From Natronogracilivirga saccharolytica (GTDB lineage: Bacteria > Bacteroidota > Rhodothermia > Balneolales > Natronogracilivirgulaceae): DNA of 64,000 bases. Made by a program: the position numbers and the translations under genes. This document shows positions 24,915 through 59,733 of this stretch, in pieces. The DNA lies in the NCBI RefSeq assembly GCF_017921895.1, contig NZ_JAFIDN010000010.1, positions 1-64,000 of the forward strand, read 5' to 3'. How positions within the stretch are numbered: position 1 is the stretch's first letter; each line of letters begins with the position of its first letter. A model generated the notes under the pieces. It did no database searches and had not been told where the DNA came from. It saw only the letters and a list, made by a program, of their open reading frames with translations.

Positions 24915-24961
24915 GGTGTTCAGCCTGTAGTTTGTAGTACGTTACTGCAAGATAATGGTAA

Positions 24962-25137
24962 GGCGGTCTGGCTATGCCCTCTTTTATCGATGATCGCAAT
25001 CAATGACTGGTATTTGTCGGCCGGCCCCATGATGCGCCCAGTATCCCTGCGTAGCCGGCTATCATTTTGCCCGGCGCAGCATGTGCAAAAAACGTATTTA
25101 CAAAATATTACTCCGCCCCCCATCAACGTCAAATTAA
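24962..25137. repeat. Dispersed repeat, copy A
   Basis: About 175 bases closely matching 33558-33735 (copy C) and partly 32649-32716 (copy B). Shared strings include CAATGACTGGTATTTGTC, CCGGCCCCATGATGCGCCC and TATCCCTGCGT. Short internal GCCGGC inverted segments are present. It precedes the lipoprotein gene start. Confidence 0.75.
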
Positions 25138-25745: not shown

Positions 25746-26048
25746 TTAACGCTTCCTGAGAATATCAAGATGAAGTAATTGTTCATCTCTAATTATGTGG
25801 ATGATGTAGATCCGGTTATTTTCTTCTCTGTAAAAAATCTGGCAAGGCGAAACCAATAACCTGCGATAAGTGGACTCTTCCAGATCTTCTACAGGTTTTC
25901 CTGATTTTGGATATTCACGTAGTTGAACGACACGTTTGAAAACACTGCGAACAAGATTCCTGGCAACTTTCGGATTGTCCAGTGAGATGTAATCAGCAAT
26001 ATCATCGAGTTCTTGAAGTGCCGGTTCCGTCCAGATTATTTGAGCCAT
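25746..26048 (-). CDS. RelE/ParE-family toxin
   Basis: A 100-residue toxin of standard length. It has the N-terminal helix hairpin (IIWTEPALQELDDIADYISL), the YPKSGKPVEDL loop region and the C-terminal beta strand IYIIHIIRDEQLLHLDIL. ParE poisons gyrase while RelE cleaves mRNA; the target cannot be told from sequence. It overlaps the Phd antitoxin gene by 13 bases, the usual coupling. Confidence 0.88.
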   Translation of the reverse strand: MAQIIWTEPALQELDDIADYISLDNPKVARNLVRSVFKRVVQLREYPKSGKPVEDLEESTYRRLLVSPCQIFYREENNRIYIIHIIRDEQLLHLDILRKR

Positions 26049-26293
26049 CGACTCATTTTCTTTTGGGCCTCTTCATGTGTCACTACGCGATCTTCAAGGA
26101 TAGCTTTTTCGCCTCTCGCAAGACCTTCCAGGAGTTTCATCCTGCGAAGTAAGTTTTCAAATGATTCCACATCAATAAGATAAGCAGAAGGCTTGCCATG
26201 CTCTGTGATCAAAACAGGCTCCTTCTCCCGTTTGAGTTCGTCCAGAAGCTTTGTGGCTTGACGTTTCAGTGTGGTGACAAGTTCTGTTTTCAT
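26036..26293 (-). CDS. Phd/YefM-family antitoxin
   Basis: An 85-residue protein. The N-terminal DNA-binding fold has LVTTLKRQATKLLDELKREK and the typical VLITEHGKPSAYLIDVESFE. The C-terminal tail (TRGEKAILEDRVVTHEEAQK in outline) wraps the toxin. It is translated just before the ParE toxin and normally represses the pair. Confidence 0.9.
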   Translation of the reverse strand: MKTELVTTLKRQATKLLDELKREKEPVLITEHGKPSAYLIDVESFENLLRRMKLLEGLARGEKAILEDRVVTHEEAQKKMSRWLK

Positions 26294-26347
26294 AGTATCA
26301 CTAAAGTATCATTTTAAGCGAATTATTACAAGCATGGACTTTAAATG

Positions 26348-26435
26348 CTCTAACGGCCCCGCGTTTAACCGGCGGGGAGATGGATGTTGTGGACGGGCGA
26401 AGTCCGTCCACCCGTACGGTTAACGCCTTGTTAAA
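26348..26435 (-). repeat. attC-like site 3
   Basis: The clearest site. On the minus strand it opens TTTAACAAGGCGTTAACCG and closes CGGTTAAACGCGGGGCC followed by GTTAGAG. Reverse-complementing the 3' arm gives TCTAACGGCCCCGCGTTTAA, then CCGGCGGGG. This pairs with the 5' arm (TAAC, GCGTT, AACCG, CGGG) with bulges. An inner perfect hairpin GTGGACGGACTTCGCCCGTCCAC forms the tip. It starts in the stop codon of the HigA gene. Confidence 0.7.
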
Positions 26436-26721
26436 CCTCTGAAGAGTCCTGTAATTCAAGCTTCAAGGTTTTGCCAAAGGCCCTTGCGTATTTTTCCAGC
26501 GTAGAGAGCCTGATATCCTCGGCATGATTTTCAATTCTGGAAATTGCAGACTTCTTGGTGTTCAGTTTTTGTGCGACTTCTTCCTGTGTTAATCCGGCAT
26601 CTTCTCTGGCAAGTTTGAGCATGACGCCGATTTTAAACTTTTGATAGCCGGATTCAAAATTTTTGGCAAATTCGGGATCTGCCTTTTTCCGTTCCTGGAT
26701 ATAAGCTTCTAAATCGCTCAT
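26431..26721 (-). CDS. higA: XRE-family HTH antitoxin (HigA-like)
   Basis: A 96-residue protein with a helix-turn-helix at about 38-88 ([20 protein letters not shown], then KSAISRIEN). This is the HigA type that follows a HigB toxin. It overlaps the toxin stop by four bases. It probably represses the operon and neutralises the toxin. Its stop lies in the first bases of an attC-like site, tight cassette packing. Confidence 0.88.
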
Positions 26722-27074
26722 AATGATTCTCCTTTCCTAAGTAAGTAATCCGATTTTCGTTGTTCAGCAATCTGGATTTCGTTCTTCGGTGTTTTCTGTG
26801 ACTTTTTTTGGAATCCGTTGGTAAGTATAACTAGCCGCCCGTTGTGCATAAAACCGAGTAGACGAAAAATGTTTGATCCAGATTGAACCCGGACTTCCCA
26901 AATGCCAGAGGTACCGGTTAGTTTTTTGAAATATTCTTTAGGGACGCGTTTAGAGTTTTCAATCAGGCTAAGCACCCAGGCGACTTTTTGGGCTTGTTTG
27001 GCATTTAGCGAGTCTAAAAAATCAGCGATAGGTGATTTGCCAGATTGTGTTTTATAGAATATGACTTCTCTCAT
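26718..27074 (-). CDS. higB: HigB-like toxin (phage Gp49/RelE superfamily)
   Basis: A 118-residue toxin with the family start [20 protein letters not shown], the middle stretch [19 protein letters not shown], and [18 protein letters not shown], which is near-diagnostic for the Gp49-like HigB group. Family members cleave mRNA on the ribosome. The toxin gene precedes the antitoxin, as usual for higBA. Confidence 0.92.
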
Positions 27075-27184
27075 CTGCCCAAGTTAACAAAAACGTGAAC
27101 ACCGAAAAATAATTATTCGAAATAGAAAGGGGTGGGGCAGAGGTTTAACTATTTATTATATGTCAAAATTACTGCTGTGTCTCC

Positions 27185-27461
27185 TCACTGCACAAACATC
27201 ATCTTCCAGGAGATCACATATGCGCCCGCCTCGAGACGATAAATGAATACACCGCTGGGCAGGCCGCTTGCGTCGAAAGTCACATCATGCCAGCCGGCTC
27301 AGCGGGTTTCATCGACCAGTGTAGCTGCCTTCTGACCGAGAACATCGTAAACCGTCTGCGTTACGTGTGCCTGTTCAGGTATGGCGAACCGGATTTAGTT
27401 GGATGGATTGAAGGGGTTCGGATAGTTCTGATCCAATGCCAGTTCACCGGGCAGGCTAATG
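27185..27461 (-). pseudogene. T9SS C-terminal sorting domain remnant
   Basis: The minus-strand translation resembles a type A sorting domain: LDQNYPNPFNPSN, IRFAIPEQAHVTQTVYDVLG, a DETR..AGWHDV stretch, then DASGLPSGVFIYRLEAGAY and a final KMMFVQ. Two in-frame stops interrupt it (after NPSN and after DETR) and no passenger domain remains. It is the fossil end of a protein once exported by type IX secretion. The last 100 bases nearly repeat at 32131-32230. Confidence 0.8.
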
Positions 27462-27536
27462 GCCAGCATTTAACCGGCTCGGTGAGGATGTAGTGGGCGG
27501 GCGAAAGTCTGTCCAACCGTATGGTTGGTTATTCAC
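27454..27536 (-). repeat. attC-like site 4
   Basis: It opens GTGAATAACCAACCATACGG and closes GAGCCGGTTAAATGCTGG, then CCATTAGCC. AACC..CGG pairs with CCGGTT. It follows the stop of the IS-truncated cassette gene and runs into the T9SS remnant. Confidence 0.5.
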
Positions 27537-27768
27537 TTAGTAATCGAAACGTTGGTGTAATACGATTTTTCTCAGATAAGAAAGAGGCCAGGTCTGGTTC
27601 ACTGCACAACCCCAGATGATATCTAAACTTATTTTGACCAGACTCGTCATAACGTGCTCCTTTTGGCATGGCAGGATATTTTACAACAATCTTTTCTCCT
27701 TTTCTAACCTTTAGGTCGAATCTTGGAGGCCCGGTATCAGCAATTGGGGTATAAATTGATCTTTTAAA
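27529..27768 (-). pseudogene. Cassette gene truncated by the IS110-family element
   Basis: An open frame of about 80 codons runs from the IS boundary to a stop at 27529 inside an attC-like site, with no start codon near its beginning. It reads in part YTPIADTGPPRFDLKVRKGE and KNRITPTFRLLSE. I do not recognise the family. The beta-rich pattern resembles the small lipoproteins nearby. The missing N-terminal part was not found on the far side of the IS in a matching frame. Confidence 0.55.
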
Positions 27769-28960
27769 AAAGGACGTCCCCCTTTGTTACATTTCAGTAC
27801 TCAGTATAACCGAAATGAAACATAATGGAGGACGCCATGATACACATCGGAATAGACCTACATACTCGCAATATGACGCTTGCCGCGGTAAATGACAACG
27901 GTGATTTGTTGAAACTGGAAAGCATTCGTTGCTGTTCCTTGGCATTAGATCGTTTTTTTTCAAAGATCAGTCATCCGGCACAAGCCGTTGTTGAAAGTAC
28001 AAGCAGCTGGTATTGGCTTGACGACTGGTTTCGCCATAAGGGCATAACCTTGAAACTGGCCCATGCCAAAATGCTCAAGGCCATCTCTTATGCTAAGGTT
28101 AAAACCGACTCTGTGGATGCGCATATGCTCGCCGAGCTGTTGCGCACTGGACTGGTTCCGGAAAGCTGGAAATCCGAAAAGCGGCAACGAGAACTTCGTG
28201 AATTGACCCGGGCTCGACTTCGGTGGATTCTTAAACGAAATCAGTTCCAAAACTTTACTTACAGTATTGCTACACGTTACAACCTGACGGTAAAATCCTC
28301 CGACTGGCGAAATGTCAGAAATTTACGCATGTCTCTCAGGAATCATCTTCCGGATGAAGCATGGCTGGAGGCAAGTCTGAGCATCGACCAGGTCATAGAG
28401 ATGCAGAATTCCATAGATCGGATTGAAAAAGCCATTGACCGGCAACTCTGGTACCGTGAAGAAGTTAAACGATTGATGGAAATTCCGGGTATCGGACCAG
28501 TAAGTGCCTGGTCCATTTTGTCTGAAGTCGGTGATATTACCCGTTTTCCTTCCGACAAGCAGTTTGCCAGTTACTGCCGTCTGGTACCGGGCAGCAATGA
28601 CAGTGGAGGAAAGCAACGCCATAAAACCGGTTCCAAAGATGGCAACAAGTATCTGAAAATTGCCTTTGGCCAAGCGGCAATTGGGGCTTATACGAATTAC
28701 GGTGAGGTGAAGAAGTTTTATAACAAGCTCAGGCGCCGCAAGGGTCCCAAAGTTGCCCGCACCATCGTAGCCAAAGAACTCTCGCGCATTGTGTGGTACG
28801 TTCTAGCGAAAAATCAGCCGTATAAAGGTTTTAAAGGCCAGATGACGAAGAAAAGCAAAAGTTATTCATGGCCCCATCCTGTAAGCCCGTAATGTAAAAC
28901 AGGGGTAGTTCCAACCCGTCAAATTGATTGGGAAACAGGGTGGCAGGCCGTTAAAAGATC
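27758..28960 (+). mobile_element. IS110-family insertion sequence
   Basis: The element encloses one transposase gene. Ends are proposed from two inverted repeats. The outer pair is GATCTTTTAA at 27758-27767 and TTAAAAGATC at 28951-28960. The inner imperfect pair is GGACGTCCCCCTTTGTTACA at 27772 and TAATGTAAAACAGGGG.. at 28890-28912. Subterminal inverted repeats are a trait of the IS1111 subgroup. No target duplication is expected. It truncates a cassette gene on its left. Confidence 0.75.
27837..28892 (+). CDS. IS110-family transposase (DEDD recombinase)
   Basis: A 351-residue transposase. The start is ATG 27837, preceded by GGAGG at an ideal distance (ATG 27825 contains the ribosome binding site). 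The RuvC-like DEDD domain has GIDLHTRNMTLAAV, VVESTSSWYWLDDW and KTDSVDAHMLAELLR. The C-terminal Tnp_20 domain has MEIPGIGPVSAWSILSEVGD and the Ser region GSNDSGGKQRHKTGSKDGNK. It appears intact. IS110 elements are guided by an element-encoded bridge RNA, to be sought in the flanking non-coding ends. Confidence 0.95.
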   Translation: MIHIGIDLHTRNMTLAAVNDNGDLLKLESIRCCSLALDRFFSKISHPAQAVVESTSSWYWLDDWFRHKGITLKLAHAKMLKAISYAKVKTDSVDAHMLAELLRTGLVPESWKSEKRQRELRELTRARLRWILKRNQFQNFTYSIATRYNLTVKSSDWRNVRNLRMSLRNHLPDEAWLEASLSIDQVIEMQNSIDRIEKAIDRQLWYREEVKRLMEIPGIGPVSAWSILSEVGDITRFPSDKQFASYCRLVPGSNDSGGKQRHKTGSKDGNKYLKIAFGQAAIGAYTNYGEVKKFYNKLRRRKGPKVARTIVAKELSRIVWYVLAKNQPYKGFKGQMTKKSKSYSWPHPVSP

Positions 28961-29334
28961 TGGGATAGTTCACACTTTAGTGAACAGTTACAGAACAGAG
29001 TTTTGTAAAAAAGCCCGAAAAGCTGTTTGGACGCCATAATCAAGCGTCTGTCAGGATGGACAGGCCTCCATTTTTAATGGATTTAGAAACTCATAAATTA
29101 AACTGCTGGTAGCAGAGGGGAATTGGAATATGTTACTTGACAATGTCCTTTCTAAAGCTGGGTATAACGCAAAAGTTTTAACCTGAAGCAGTAACGCAAC
29201 CCTCAGAGAATGGGGCAAGCATTCTCTACAGAATTGCATTTGACAACAGCAAGGGCCCCGTCAGTTTGATTCAATCAGAAACTATCACTTTGTAAAACAG
29301 AGTACTCTAATCGTCTGGAAAACACTTTTCCAGC
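28961..29334. other. Gene-free flank of the IS element
   Basis: No intact gene is supported. GTTCAC/GTGAAC forms a small palindrome at 28968-28985. A 28-codon minus frame starting at 29037 shows no family resemblance. The region reads as decayed cassette or IS-derived DNA. Confidence 0.4.
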
Positions 29335-29504
29335 TTAACTTCTGGCAGCTTGCGGGTTTTCCGGAGAAACTTGCAAGGCGATATCGTCGGCACTGAGGCA
29401 GATTACGTTTTTATCTTCAAGGGTTTCTGAAGCAATAGTGATTTTGCTGACCCATCAGGACCAGCTACGACAATAAGGTGTCTATCATCTTTGGATTTGG
29501 ACAT
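29335..29504 (-). pseudogene. Frameshifted, truncated zeta-toxin-like P-loop kinase
   Basis: From ATG 29504 the frame reads MSKSKDDRHLIVVAGPDGSA, a zeta-toxin-like Walker A (usual GPNGSGKST), and then is frameshifted. The next frame continues ITIASETLEDKNVICLSADD, then IALQVSPENPQAARS and a stop. ADDIA..SPENP matches the zeta signature (NADEIA..LSPxNP). The frameshift at the Walker A and the early stop make it non-functional. Zeta toxins phosphorylate UDP-sugars of peptidoglycan synthesis. Confidence 0.65.
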
Positions 29505-29562
29505 GACTGAATATAAGAGCCTCAGTCATGATCAGGAAGCTGCAAGTTGGGATCAGATGTAT

Positions 29563-30586: not shown

Positions 30587-30892
30587 TTATCGAAATAACT
30601 TGCCGGGTTGGGTCGGTTTTTGCCGGACATGGAGAACCGTTGTGATGTATATTACTCGCTTCGGTTTTCGAATTCGGTATATGATTCTGTAATTTCCTTC
30701 AATGATTTCTCTTAGATCGGGATGGTTGTATTCAGGTACAATTCTACCTGATTCAGGATATTCAATGAGCTGATCTGTTCTCTCAAAAATAAGCTCAGAC
30801 CACTTTTTTGCCGCCTGGAAATTATACTGATCGATATAGTTTACGTTTGAATTAACTCTTTGGATCGCAAGTTTGGTCCAGATTACTTCCAC
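30587..30892 (-). CDS. RelE/ParE-family toxin (second copy)
   Basis: A 101-residue toxin with VIWTKLAIQRVNSNVNYID at the start, the AAKKWSELIFERTDQLIEYP helix, ESGRIVPEYNHPDLREIIEG and the strand YRIIYRIRKPKRVIYITTVL. It is only distantly similar to the ParE at 25.7 kb, so it was acquired independently. It overlaps its antitoxin by ten bases. Confidence 0.88.
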   Translation of the reverse strand: MEVIWTKLAIQRVNSNVNYIDQYNFQAAKKWSELIFERTDQLIEYPESGRIVPEYNHPDLREIIEGNYRIIYRIRKPKRVIYITTVLHVRQKPTQPGKLFR

Positions 30893-31176
30893 TTGGCCAG
30901 ATTTTCACGGATTAGTTGTTTAGCATCTTCATGAGCAATCACTTCACCACGAGCAATTTGGCCGTCTGCTTCCATGAGTTCTTCCATGAGAGTAATTTTA
31001 TCAATCATTTGTTGGTATTCGGAAACATCAACAAGAACAGCGGCACTTTTACCATGCTGAGTCAGCACTATTGATCGCTTTTCACGCTTTAGACGCCCAA
31101 TAAAATCAGCAGCATTTTTTCTGAAATCCGAAAGAGGTTGAATATCTTGCTCTAAAGAAAAATTGGATATAGCCAT
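30883..31176 (-). CDS. Phd/YefM-family antitoxin (second copy)
   Basis: A 97-residue antitoxin from ATG 31176; an upstream ATG at 31209 adds non-conserved residues. The DNA-binding region has LSDFRKNAADFIGRLKREKR and SIVLTQHGKSAAVLVDVSEY. The C-terminal tail has MEADGQIARGEVIAHEDAKQ, the toxin-binding type. It is coupled to the ParE toxin that follows. Confidence 0.9.
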   Translation of the reverse strand: MAISNFSLEQDIQPLSDFRKNAADFIGRLKREKRSIVLTQHGKSAAVLVDVSEYQQMIDKITLMEELMEADGQIARGEVIAHEDAKQLIRENLAKWK

Positions 31177-31267
31177 TGTTTTGCAATTAGGGGACAATAT
31201 GTCGTACAATTAAAGTACTAAATAATTACTTAACGTGAAAAAATGATAAGTTGGTATTGAGAAAGAG

Positions 31268-31358
31268 CGTTAACGGCCCGCAATTTAACCGGCGGGGTAA
31301 TCCCTCAGGGAAAGGCAAGAGACTTTCAACCCGTCCGCTTGAAATTGCCTGTTATATC
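31268..31358 (-). repeat. attC-like site 7
   Basis: It opens GATATAACAGGCAATTTCAA, then GCGGACGGG, and closes CCGGTTAAATTGCGGGCC, then GTTAACG. Reverse-complementing the 3' arm gives AACGGCCCGCAATTTAACCG, then GCGGG. This pairs with AAC..GC.AATTT.AA.CGG.CGGG of the 5' arm with extrahelical bases. With site 3 it is the best attC candidate. It follows the VapC stop by about 18 bases. Confidence 0.7.
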
Positions 31359-31375
31359 GCAGAAAAAATACCAGG

Positions 31376-31780
31376 CTAACCAGCTACGAAATCATCAGGA
31401 TGAATCGCAATTGCAGAAAATTCAGAAAGAATTTTTTTATCAAAAGTGACGAGTTGAATGTCAAAATCAGATGCAAGGGCTACAAATTCGCAATCATAGG
31501 CCGAGCAAGTGGACTCGGACATCAAAGTTAAAACCTGCTTTGAATTGATTGAACATTCTCTGGTACCCATGAGCTCTTCGGCTTCATCAATGGCCTGATA
31601 AATGGAAGATAAATCAAGGATCTTTTTGCGATAATACAGGGAAAGAACATTTCTGAACTCAGAAACCCACAGCAGAGGTGCAATCCACTCGGGATCCTTT
31701 TTGAGGCTTTGATAGGCCAATTGCTCCATATTATTGGGTACCCAAAAACTGGCAATCAGGTTTGTGTCGGCAACAATCAT
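31376..31780 (-). CDS. vapC: PIN-domain ribonuclease toxin (VapC family)
   Basis: A 134-residue PIN protein. Acidic active-site residues lie in IVADTNLIASFWV (Asp5), in EFRNVLSLYY (Glu), and in the later SAYDCEFVALASDFDIQLVT (paired Asp). The standard length fits VapC. Such toxins cleave tRNA or rRNA. It overlaps the RHH antitoxin stop by four bases. Confidence 0.92.
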   Translation of the reverse strand: MIVADTNLIASFWVPNNMEQLAYQSLKKDPEWIAPLLWVSEFRNVLSLYYRKKILDLSSIYQAIDEAEELMGTRECSINSKQVLTLMSESTCSAYDCEFVALASDFDIQLVTFDKKILSEFSAIAIHPDDFVAG

Positions 31781-32019
31781 GGACGACCCTGATCAATCGC
31801 TTGTTGAATTTCTTCAATGGATAAAGAACCCTTAGCTCTTTTTTTTAGTTTTCGGGCTCTGTCAATAAGGATGTCCGGATCATGTATTCTACTTTGAAGA
31901 GATTTTTTCAGGGTCATAATGACCTCACTGTTCACACTGCGATGATGTTTATCCGCTTGCAGCTTAAGCTTTTGATAAACCTCGTCGGGAATTCCCTTAA
32001 TGGTAATATTCGTTGGCAT
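31777..32019 (-). CDS. vapB: Ribbon-helix-helix antitoxin (FitA/Arc-like)
   Basis: An 80-residue protein from ATG 32019; the extension to 32046 is not conserved. The N-terminus reads TNITIKGIPDEVYQKLKLQA, a FitA-type ribbon-helix-helix, followed by DKHHRSVNSEVIMTLKKSL. The C-terminal tail binds the toxin. It precedes VapC and probably represses the pair. Confidence 0.88.
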   Translation of the reverse strand: MPTNITIKGIPDEVYQKLKLQADKHHRSVNSEVIMTLKKSLQSRIHDPDILIDRARKLKKRAKGSLSIEEIQQAIDQGRP

Positions 32020-32133
32020 AATGAAATAAGTAAGTTGTGGTTTCATTATGAAACTAAAAAGGTTCTTGATTTATTGCAAGAGCTATGCGATATAACTACT
32101 TATTATGTGTCAGCATTGTTAATGTGTCCCCCC

Positions 32134-32472
32134 TCACTTCACAAACATCATTTTCCTGGAGATCACATAAGCGCCTGCCTCGATGCGATAAATGAATACG
32201 CCGCTGGACAGGCCGCTTGCATCGAAGGAACCACCAAAGCAGGTGGAGCAAAAATTTTCGCCGTACGTCCCAATCGGTTCAAAACCTTTGCTTTCGTTCC
32301 AGTTTCCGGTATCCGAAGCATCGATATCGGCGATATGGATGAAGTGTCTGTCCAGATTGGCGGAGTCAGCCATAGCCTGGAGCTGATCCCGTGTTTCAAT
32401 TTGATACGGATCCTGCTCTGTACCCGATCCGCCGGCAAACCGGGCGATTGAGATGGCCGGCAGCAGAACCAT
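32134..32472 (-). pseudogene. T9SS cargo protein with an internal deletion
   Basis: An open 112-codon frame joins two ends of a much larger protein. The start ARFAGGSGTEQDPYQIETRD, then DIDASDTGNWNES..GFEPIG, is the beginning of a repeat-type adhesin domain. The end SSGVFIYRIEAGAYVISRKM, then MFVK, is the tail of a type IX sorting domain. The join falls at FGGSFDASGL. It is most simply a deletion remnant, since nothing mature lies between. Its last 100 bases nearly repeat those at 27185. Confidence 0.7.
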
Positions 32473-32648
32473 TACAGCTATGATGATGAAGCTGTCAATT
32501 TTCGGAACTTTTCCACTCTTTGAATTAATCAGAATAAATATCCTGGTATCTTTTTATGATGTGATTGCGATTTTCCCGGGTCACGTTTTGCCCTTGAATG
32601 TGCTCGCTGTTGGAAAAAGCCATGGACGTGCTCTCTTTTTTTGCGTTT

Positions 32649-32716
32649 GGCGGTTTGGCTATGCTCTCATCGATCGATGATCACAATCAATGACTGGTAT
32701 TTGTCGGCCAAACCCT
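32649..32716. repeat. Dispersed repeat, copy B (partial)
   Basis: It matches the first 65 bases of copies A and C (GGCTATGCTCTC, CAATGACTGGTATTTGTCGG) and then diverges just before the end of the neighbouring outer-membrane gene. Confidence 0.7.
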
Positions 32717-33351: not shown

Positions 33352-33557
33352 TTTTTTTTCCTTCCAATAAATATTGAAATCAACCGGGTAATCACGGTAG
33401 GCATCCGGAACCATAACGATATACCGAGCCTGATCAGGTTGCGTGGTAACTAGTCTGCCAATTTTTACATTATAAATAAGTATATCATTTTTCCAGTTTT
33501 AACTGCTGATTTTCTAAAAATATGCCATGAGGCGCCCTCTCTGTGGTTTGCCTCTTG

Positions 33558-33735
33558 CGGTTGGGCTATGCTCTCGTCAGTCGATAATCGCAGTCAATGA
33601 CTGGTATTTGTCAGCCGGCCCCATGATGCGCCCTGTATCCCTGCGTGGCCGGCTATCATTTTGTCCGGCGCAACATGTGCGTGAAAACCTGTTAACAACA
33701 TATTACCCCCCATGTAATGTCAAGTTATATTTTAA
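33558..33735. repeat. Dispersed repeat, copy C
   Basis: Full-length partner of copy A. An open 72-codon plus frame (33527-33745) runs through it. Compared with copy A, most base differences in the best-conserved 30 codons (NDWYLSAGPMMRPVSL onward) fall in third positions. Confidence 0.75.
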
Positions 33736-59580: not shown

Positions 59581-59599
59581 AAAACGACAACCATCTTCC

Positions 59600-59733
59600 C
59601 TCATCTTTCCCACGGGACGGTTTCACCATCCCGGAGCAGGATTTAGCACCTGACCTTCCCGATTACACAGGTAATCCGGAAGCGGTTGCTAAGGTTTCAC
59701 AGGGCCTGATCCCTCCACCTTTCTCGATAAGAG
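59600..59733 (-). promoter_or_regulatory. SAM-I (S-box) riboswitch
   Basis: The minus strand reads CTCTTATCGAGAAAGGTGGA, then GGGATCAGGCCCTGTGAAAC and CTTAGCAACC, later GGTGCTAAATCCTGC and closing GATGAG. These are the conserved blocks of the S-box aptamer. The P1 stem CTCTTATC/GATGAG closes it. It controls metY-metX-thrA. The attenuator lies just downstream. Confidence 0.95.

What the first reader, a model, noticed from the sequence alone, without database searches (positions are those of the whole stretch)
27529..28960. IS110-family element inserted in a cassette gene next to an attC-like site
The left flank is an open 80-codon frame with no start that ends in attC-like site 4. IS110/IS1111 elements are known to target attC sites of integrons, so the location supports the integron reading. 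The short non-coding ends are where a bridge RNA should lie, though only about 70-80 bases remain on each side with my proposed ends.
Basis: partly seen in the sequence, partly recalled or inferred. Interest (0 to 1): 0.5.

Follow-up and report, generated by a model that had tools for sequence, protein, structure and literature searches.

The report
RNA-guided insertion sequence off its integron target
This is a bacterial jumping gene whose close relatives seem to use a built-in guide RNA to land in integron recombination sites, while this copy carries an altered guide and sits inside a neighbouring gene instead, at a place that its own guide partly spells out.

Summary
Comparison with relatives puts the junctions at 27758 and 29157. 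The transposase is an intact IS110-family DEDD type. With 79 nt before the gene, 265 nt after it and subterminal repeats, the layout is IS1111. Of 23 copies with both junctions set, 21 have the GTT of an attC R' box at a fixed offset; this copy and L020 do not. Three guide words match each copy's own left target, right target and element end better than shuffled pairs in 19 copies (0 of 20,000); a fourth, for the element's start, is weaker. The window copy's left word matches its own non-attC flank (AAATT-G); its right words match only CTG. It interrupts a cassette gene whose other half is missing on the right, so that flank was probably rearranged. Verdict: a new member of a known kind (IS1111 with bridge/seekRNA, of an attC-targeting lineage), probably naturally retargeted. 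The finding is partly supported.

The parts
27529..27757 (-). C-terminal fragment of a cassette gene (lipoprotein-like by eye), interrupted by the element
   Evidence: 77-aa query with relatives at 43-52% in G116 and G113 whose frames go on upstream; no Pfam match
27455..27540 (-). attC-like site of that cassette (array runs on the minus strand)
   Evidence: repeat families D3 (61% to reference) and D6 (67%); weak single-strand fold, z -1.38
27752..27757 (+). left target word TAAATT
   Evidence: 5 of 6 match to the guide word at 28920-28925
27758..29157 (+). whole insertion sequence, with the junction base G at both ends
   Evidence: aligned termini, 13 left and 12 right ends with the window included; junctions of 23 copies
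27769..27777 (+). left subterminal inverted repeat AAAGGACGT
   Evidence: 8 of 9 match with the right one
27837..28892 (+). transposase, 351 aa from MIHIGIDL; D7, E53, D91 and S256 invariant in 18 aligned rows; D94 is present but not invariant there
28874..28943 (+). target-binding stem-loop of the predicted bridge/seekRNA; stem 28874-28882 with 28935-28943
   Evidence: 9-bp stem; each pair has at least one row changed on both sides (1 to 10 of 19 rows) and 1-3 rows broken or gapped; fold of the window strand, z -2.44
28893..28900 (+). right-target guide word S1, TGTAAAAC (reverse complement GTTTTACA)
   Evidence: matches own right flank at only 2 of 6
28920..28925 (+). left-target guide word S2, CAAATT, followed by GATT
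28953..28960 (+). right-donor guide word AAAAGATC, reverse complement of the element's first bases GATCTTTT
29018..29030 (+). second-loop word S3, AAAAG-CTGTTTGG: element end plus right-target bases
29143..29151 (-). right subterminal inverted repeat AAAGGACAT
29158..29167 (+). right flank CTGGGTATAA: not an R' box, matches the guide only at CTG
29162..29183 (-). attC-like 3' arm GGTTAAA-N8-GTTATAC, four bases from the right end of the element
   Evidence: pattern scan of the window: 2 matches in array orientation (here and 26348-26370), 0 in the other; no matching 5' arm was seen by eye

Best explanation
It is an IS1111-type insertion sequence of an attC-targeting lineage found in Bacteroidota. 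A DEDD transposase uses an RNA from the 3' non-coding region. One stem-loop reads the right target (S1) and the left target (S2); a second region reads the element's own start (GATC...) and its end plus the first right-target bases (S3). The circular element recombines at LT-G-RT. Relatives read L'-NNGNN-R' of attC. In this copy the guide has changed, so it entered a cassette gene at ...AAATT-G rather than attC, in the orientation opposite to the array. The right flank was later replaced, probably by a deletion or rearrangement next to the element. Shown here by sequence: ends, guide words, co-variation, non-attC site, nesting in the attC clade. Inferred: RNA expression, binding, circle, and the order of events.
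For: NF033542 (IS110 equivalog) at 217.2 bits, cut-off 140. Junctions: 21 of 23 copies have GTT of R' at the fixed offset; the window copy and L020 do not. Guide against flank, 19 of 20 copies extracted (L053 dropped, its S3 was not caught; L023, L026 and L028 left out beforehand for damaged words): S2/LT 92 matches, shuffled mean 58.0; S3/RT1-5 87, mean 67.5; S3/RT1-2 37 of 38, mean 18.6; S1/RT 93, mean 79.5; S3/RE 81, mean 54.6; each reached by 0 of 20,000 shuffles. In 10 distinct guides: 44 against 24.8, 45 against 34.6, 20 of 20 against 10.4, 42 against 26.3 (each 0 of 20,000) and S1 48 against 39.6 (6 of 20,000). Window S2 fits its own left flank at 5 of 6 and any other copy's flank at no more than 4. 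L020, the other copy off attC, matches its own site at 5/6, 5/5 and 5/6; its neighbours look like a two-component pair, a lipase and a RecD-like gene, by eye. A covarying 9-bp stem encloses S1 and S2. In the transposase tree the window row is inside a 12-row fork (99/99) that leaves L050, the Rhodothermia rows and the other Bacteroidota rows outside, and inside an 11-row fork (95/92) that also leaves the attC copy L021 outside.
Against: The window's right guide words fit badly: S3 3 of 5, S1 2 of 6, both worse than their best fit to other copies' flanks (4 and 5). Its left flank also fits the words of L021 and L050 at 4 of 6. Related genes do not continue into the right flank in either orientation. 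Single copy in the genome, so no second insertion shows the target. A 5-base match is weak on its own (4^-5, about 1 in 1000). The word for the element's start is weaker (7 of 20,000 shuffles for 19 rows, 474 of 20,000 for 11 distinct guides). The 5'-arm test for attC was clear (at most 3 of 60 shuffles) in only 4 of 23 copies, and several copies with an R' box do as badly as the window copy or worse (L052 60, L026 56, L032 54 of 60). In L050 the right junction base is A, not G. The window row has a long branch.
Confidence: 0.78

Rival explanations
1. The element landed by chance or by an off-target event, and its guide later drifted; no functional retargeting happened.
For: Right guide words match only at CTG; one copy only; the left flank also fits two other copies' words at 4 of 6.
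Against: Left word matches 5 of 6 plus the junction G; S1 and S3 agree with each other on GTTT; L020 is a clean independent retargeted case in the same clade.
Confidence: 0.2
2. The element's recombinase inverted the 143 bp next to its right end (29158-29300) between CTG and CAG; before that the right flank began CTGTTTTACA and matched the guide fully.
For: The guide-predicted right target CTGTTTTACA occurs in the window only once apart from the guide itself, inverted, at 29300-29291; 2 of 1000 shuffles of the 403-nt flank and 0 of 151 other window stretches reach 10 of 10. A 37-codon plus-strand open frame lies in this stretch, while the Pfam-recognised cassette genes nearby run minus.
Against: Neither orientation continues the interrupted gene; tested after the match was seen; the 37-aa frame has no clear relative in 244 genomes except the same locus (best other E 0.057), so no uninverted relative is known; L011 has the same arrangement.
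Confidence: 0.18
3. The copy does sit in an attC, a diverged one.
For: An attC-like 3' arm lies 4 bases to the right, and an attC-like site about 220 bp to the left.
Against: Orientation is opposite to the array; the bases after the element are CTGG, with no GTT at the fixed offset; the left flank is coding sequence of a conserved gene.
Confidence: 0.07

Closest known systems
IS1111 family with seekRNA (ISEc11, ISKpn4, ISPst6, ISPa11; PMC11187229: abstract, outline, sections 9, 10, 13 and found passages seen)
   Same: DEDD transposase, subterminal repeats, long 3' non-coding region, top-strand match before bottom-strand match, attC as target of ISKpn4 and ISPst6; natural redirection (ISEc11 and ISXne4) is already in print
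   Different: Different phylum (recalled for the known ones); this copy is off attC; a further word S3 spells element end plus right-target bases (whether known elements have it was not checked)
IS1111-attC group (Tetu and Holmes 2008, not held; Post and Hall 2009, not looked up; both known here only as cited in papers seen)
   Same: Relatives insert at one end of attC, with the element in the same orientation as the attC
   Different: Membership by phylogeny not tested; the 20 best plasmid matches listed, of at least 5000, are 31-33% identical
IS621 bridge RNA (PMC11208160, PMC11208158; found passages seen)
   Same: Target loop and donor loop with left and right guides; bases that pair after strand exchange (handshake guides)
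   Different: RNA at the 3' side; right-target bases in the second loop extend over up to about 5 nt, the handshake guides over 2

Membership tests
IS110/IS1111 superfamily | DEDD RuvC-like domain plus Tnp domain with serine | tested here: met
   PF01548 and PF02371 over cut-off; D7, E53, D91, S256 invariant in the 18 rows compared, of 27 (9 partial rows left out); D94 present in the window, not invariant
IS1111 group | subterminal inverted repeats | tested here: met
   AAAGGACGT and AAAGGACAT, 11 and 6 nt in, 8 of 9
IS1111 group | longer non-coding region downstream of the transposase | tested here: met
   265 nt downstream, 79 nt upstream
IS1111 group | target-matching words in the 3' non-coding region | tested here: met
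   co-variation with flanks over 19 copies and covarying stem; in the window copy the right half fits poorly
IS1111 group | RNA from this region made and bound by the transposase | not testable with these tools
   needs RNA sequencing
IS1111-attC group | insertion inside attC | tested here: not met
   no R' box, coding left flank; R' GTT present in 21 of 23 copies examined
IS1111-attC group | transposase clade of the known members | not tested
   no ISKpn4-type sequence was fetched
IS110/IS1111 | circular intermediate | not testable with these tools
   needs PCR or reads

The most novel reading that the evidence does not exclude
A whole Bacteroidota lineage of IS1111 elements is dedicated to attC, and members leave the integron by rewriting three guide words at once, including about five right-target bases held in the second (donor-side) loop, so that the RNA spells both product junctions. 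In the window copy the recombinase then inverted or removed DNA next to its right end.
Probability: 0.25. Interest if true: 0.55.

Novelty: new member of a known kind. Interest (0 to 1): 0.4.

Why it matters
It gives natural examples of guide change away from integron sites, and an alignment in which each guide position can be read against its target. The two right-target bases read by the second loop match in 20 of 20 positions among 10 distinct guides. That makes a testable prediction for re-aiming IS1111 tools: the second loop has to be changed too.

Tried and rejected
Bridge RNA upstream of the gene (27700-27836): z -1.66, 11 of 200 shuffles fold as well, and 58 of its 137 bases are host sequence; not pursued, because the guide words lie downstream. 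For comparison the downstream stretch gives z -2.44 (2 of 200) in the window and -1.64 (10 of 200) in L022. Right flank as the missing half of the interrupted gene, in either orientation: no match to three relatives. Repeated own-genome target for the guide AAATTGCTGTTTTAC: no exact site; 23 sites with 1 or 2 mismatches, 6 for the backward control; not interpreted. Viral contigs and plasmids with the gene fragment: no relative. Plus-strand frame 29182-29292: strong matches only at the same locus. Promoter across the circle junction: only looked at by eye, left open. Literature: the listings, and passages of PMC11089894 and PMC12444791, show no paper whose title or opening words name attC-targeting IS in Bacteroidota; most papers of subscription journals are not held.

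Full report
What is there. An intact IS110-family transposase gene lies at 27837-28892. It is single-copy in its genome at the DNA level; other IS110-family genes in the genome are distant. A near-identical copy with the same flanks is contig PWID01000095.1 of a Balneolia MAG, also seen as G113 (796 against 799.7 bits); it is the same locus, not a second insertion. Relatives at 39-61% identity came from genome contigs and from order, class and phylum searches: 27 loci, L012-L014, L019-L034 and L050-L057. Junctions were set on both sides in 22 of these 27 plus the window. L013, L014, L030, L055 and L056 were left out because an end was missing, truncated or misread.

Ends. The aligned termini read LT | GATCTTT..AAAAAGGA ... 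TTGAC..CCTTTTTAAA-G | RT, with small departures. For the window this gives 27758 and 29157. The upstream non-coding part is 79 nt and the downstream part 265 nt. Subterminal inverted repeats AAAGGACGT/AAAGGACAT lie 11 and 6 nt in. This is the IS1111 layout described in PMC11187229.

Where relatives sit. In 21 of 23 copies the bases after the element are NN-GTT, 10 of them with the strict R' consensus GTTRRRY; in many the left flank ends in an L'-like word such as AAACGC or AATGCGC. A test for the 5' arm of attC by alignment against shuffles was clear in only 4 of 23 copies (at most 3 of 60 shuffles); in nine copies the best arm nevertheless lies 94-105 nt from the junction. The window copy (33 of 60) and L020 (60 of 60) fail this test, but so do copies with a good R' box, for instance L052 (60 of 60) and L026 (56 of 60), so the arm test alone does not set the two apart; the missing R' box does. 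L020 lies among genes that look like a two-component pair, a lipase and a RecD-like protein (by eye).

The guide RNA. In the 3' region four words recur in fixed order. S1 is the reverse complement of the right target. S2 is the left target followed by GAT or GAA. A third word, ending ATC, is the reverse complement of the element's start. S3 is the element's last bases followed by right-target bases. A 9-bp stem in which each pair has rows changed on both sides encloses S1 and S2. Permuting flanks among 19 copies, own pairs win for every word tested: S2/LT 92 against 58.0; S3/RT1-5 87 against 67.5; S3/RE 81 against 54.6; S1/RT 93 against 79.5; each 0 of 20,000. With 10 distinct guides the result holds (0 of 20,000 for all but S1, 6 of 20,000). 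The two spacer bases of the right target, which attC does not fix (recalled), match S3 in 20 of 20 cases. Related rows are not independent; the 10-guide test lessens this but does not remove it. The word for the element's start is weaker (7 of 20,000 for 19 rows, 474 of 20,000 for 11 representatives). The order, top-strand complement before bottom-strand match, is what PMC11187229 reports for IS1111. The words that match product junctions recall the handshake guides of IS621 (PMC11208158), two bases long there.

The window copy. S2 CAAATT matches the left flank TAAATT at 5 of 6; other copies' left flanks fit it at 4 or less. The window's left flank in turn fits the words of L021 and L050 at 4 of 6. 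S3 CTGTT matches the right flank CTGGG at 3 of 5, and S1 (GTTTTACA) at 2 of 6. The left flank is the C-terminal half of a lipoprotein-like gene. Relatives of that gene continue upstream with WQT or WKT codons that are absent on the right. Four bases beyond the right end lies an attC-like 3' arm in array orientation. The simplest reading is insertion into the cassette gene, then loss or rearrangement of the right flank. A 143-bp inversion would restore a full right-target match (2 of 1000 shuffles), but it does not restore the gene, so it is kept as a rival.

Polarity. In the transposase tree (27 rows; two of them distant outgroup rows of unknown target) L021, which lies in attC, is outside the 95/92 fork that holds the window row and L020, and L050, the Rhodothermia rows and the other Bacteroidota rows are outside the 99/99 fork. 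So leaving attC is probably derived, once or twice. The window row and L050 have long branches, and their exact place is unsure.

Integron context. The genome has one integron integrase over the cut-off (423 bits, C5:250831) and a short, weak attC-like match near it (C5:253618, E 0.05). The window itself, on contig C10, has cassette-like minus-strand genes with attC-like sites; of six stretches folded as single-strand DNA only 26338-26433 is clear (z -2.36; the others -1.46 to 0.14). The link between C5 and C10 is not shown.

Novelty. IS1111 elements that target attC, and natural redirection by guide change, are both in print (PMC11187229). What is added is the Bacteroidota lineage, a copy and a relative off attC, and the second-loop match to the right target; the searches named under Tried and rejected listed nothing on these, in a library that lacks most subscription papers.

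Noticed in passing
window 25746-27074, 30587-32046 (-): Cassette-like toxin-antitoxin pairs: Phd/YefM plus ParE (25746-26293), HTH plus Gp49-like (26431-27074), a second ParE (30587-30892) with an unscanned partner, and a possible VapBC-like pair (31376-32046, by eye).
   Followed up: partly
window 29330-29508 (-): Broken frames that read like the start of a zeta-type P-loop protein (VAGPDGSAKS, recalled motif), next to the element.
   Followed up: no
window 24953-25086, 32640-32709, 33547-33680: A second repeat family of 70-124 nt at 83-89% identity among the cassettes, different from the attC-like sites.
   Followed up: no
window 27176-27277 and 32125-32226: 102-nt direct repeat at 87%, looking by eye like remnants of secretion-type C-terminal coding sequence.
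   Followed up: no
G000:C7:211403-216003 (L003, L004, L017): Two further, more distant IS110-family genes lie on either side of a short, weak attC-like match at C7:214671 (E 0.03) in the same genome.
   Followed up: no
L046 (G034:C1:725000-740000): Right ends of two copies of the relative lie about 2 kb apart, each before GTT; the second lacks the S1-S2 half of its guide RNA.
   Followed up: partly
L012 (JADEXJ010000215.1): Contig titled as a cyanobacterium carries a copy that groups with Balneolales ones at low coverage (2.4 in the title); perhaps a contaminant of that assembly.
   Followed up: no
right ends; window 29137-29142: TTGACA-like box recurs at the right end, perhaps half of a promoter formed in the circle.
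   Followed up: no
window 59598-59733 (-): SAM riboswitch (72.7 bits).
   Followed up: no
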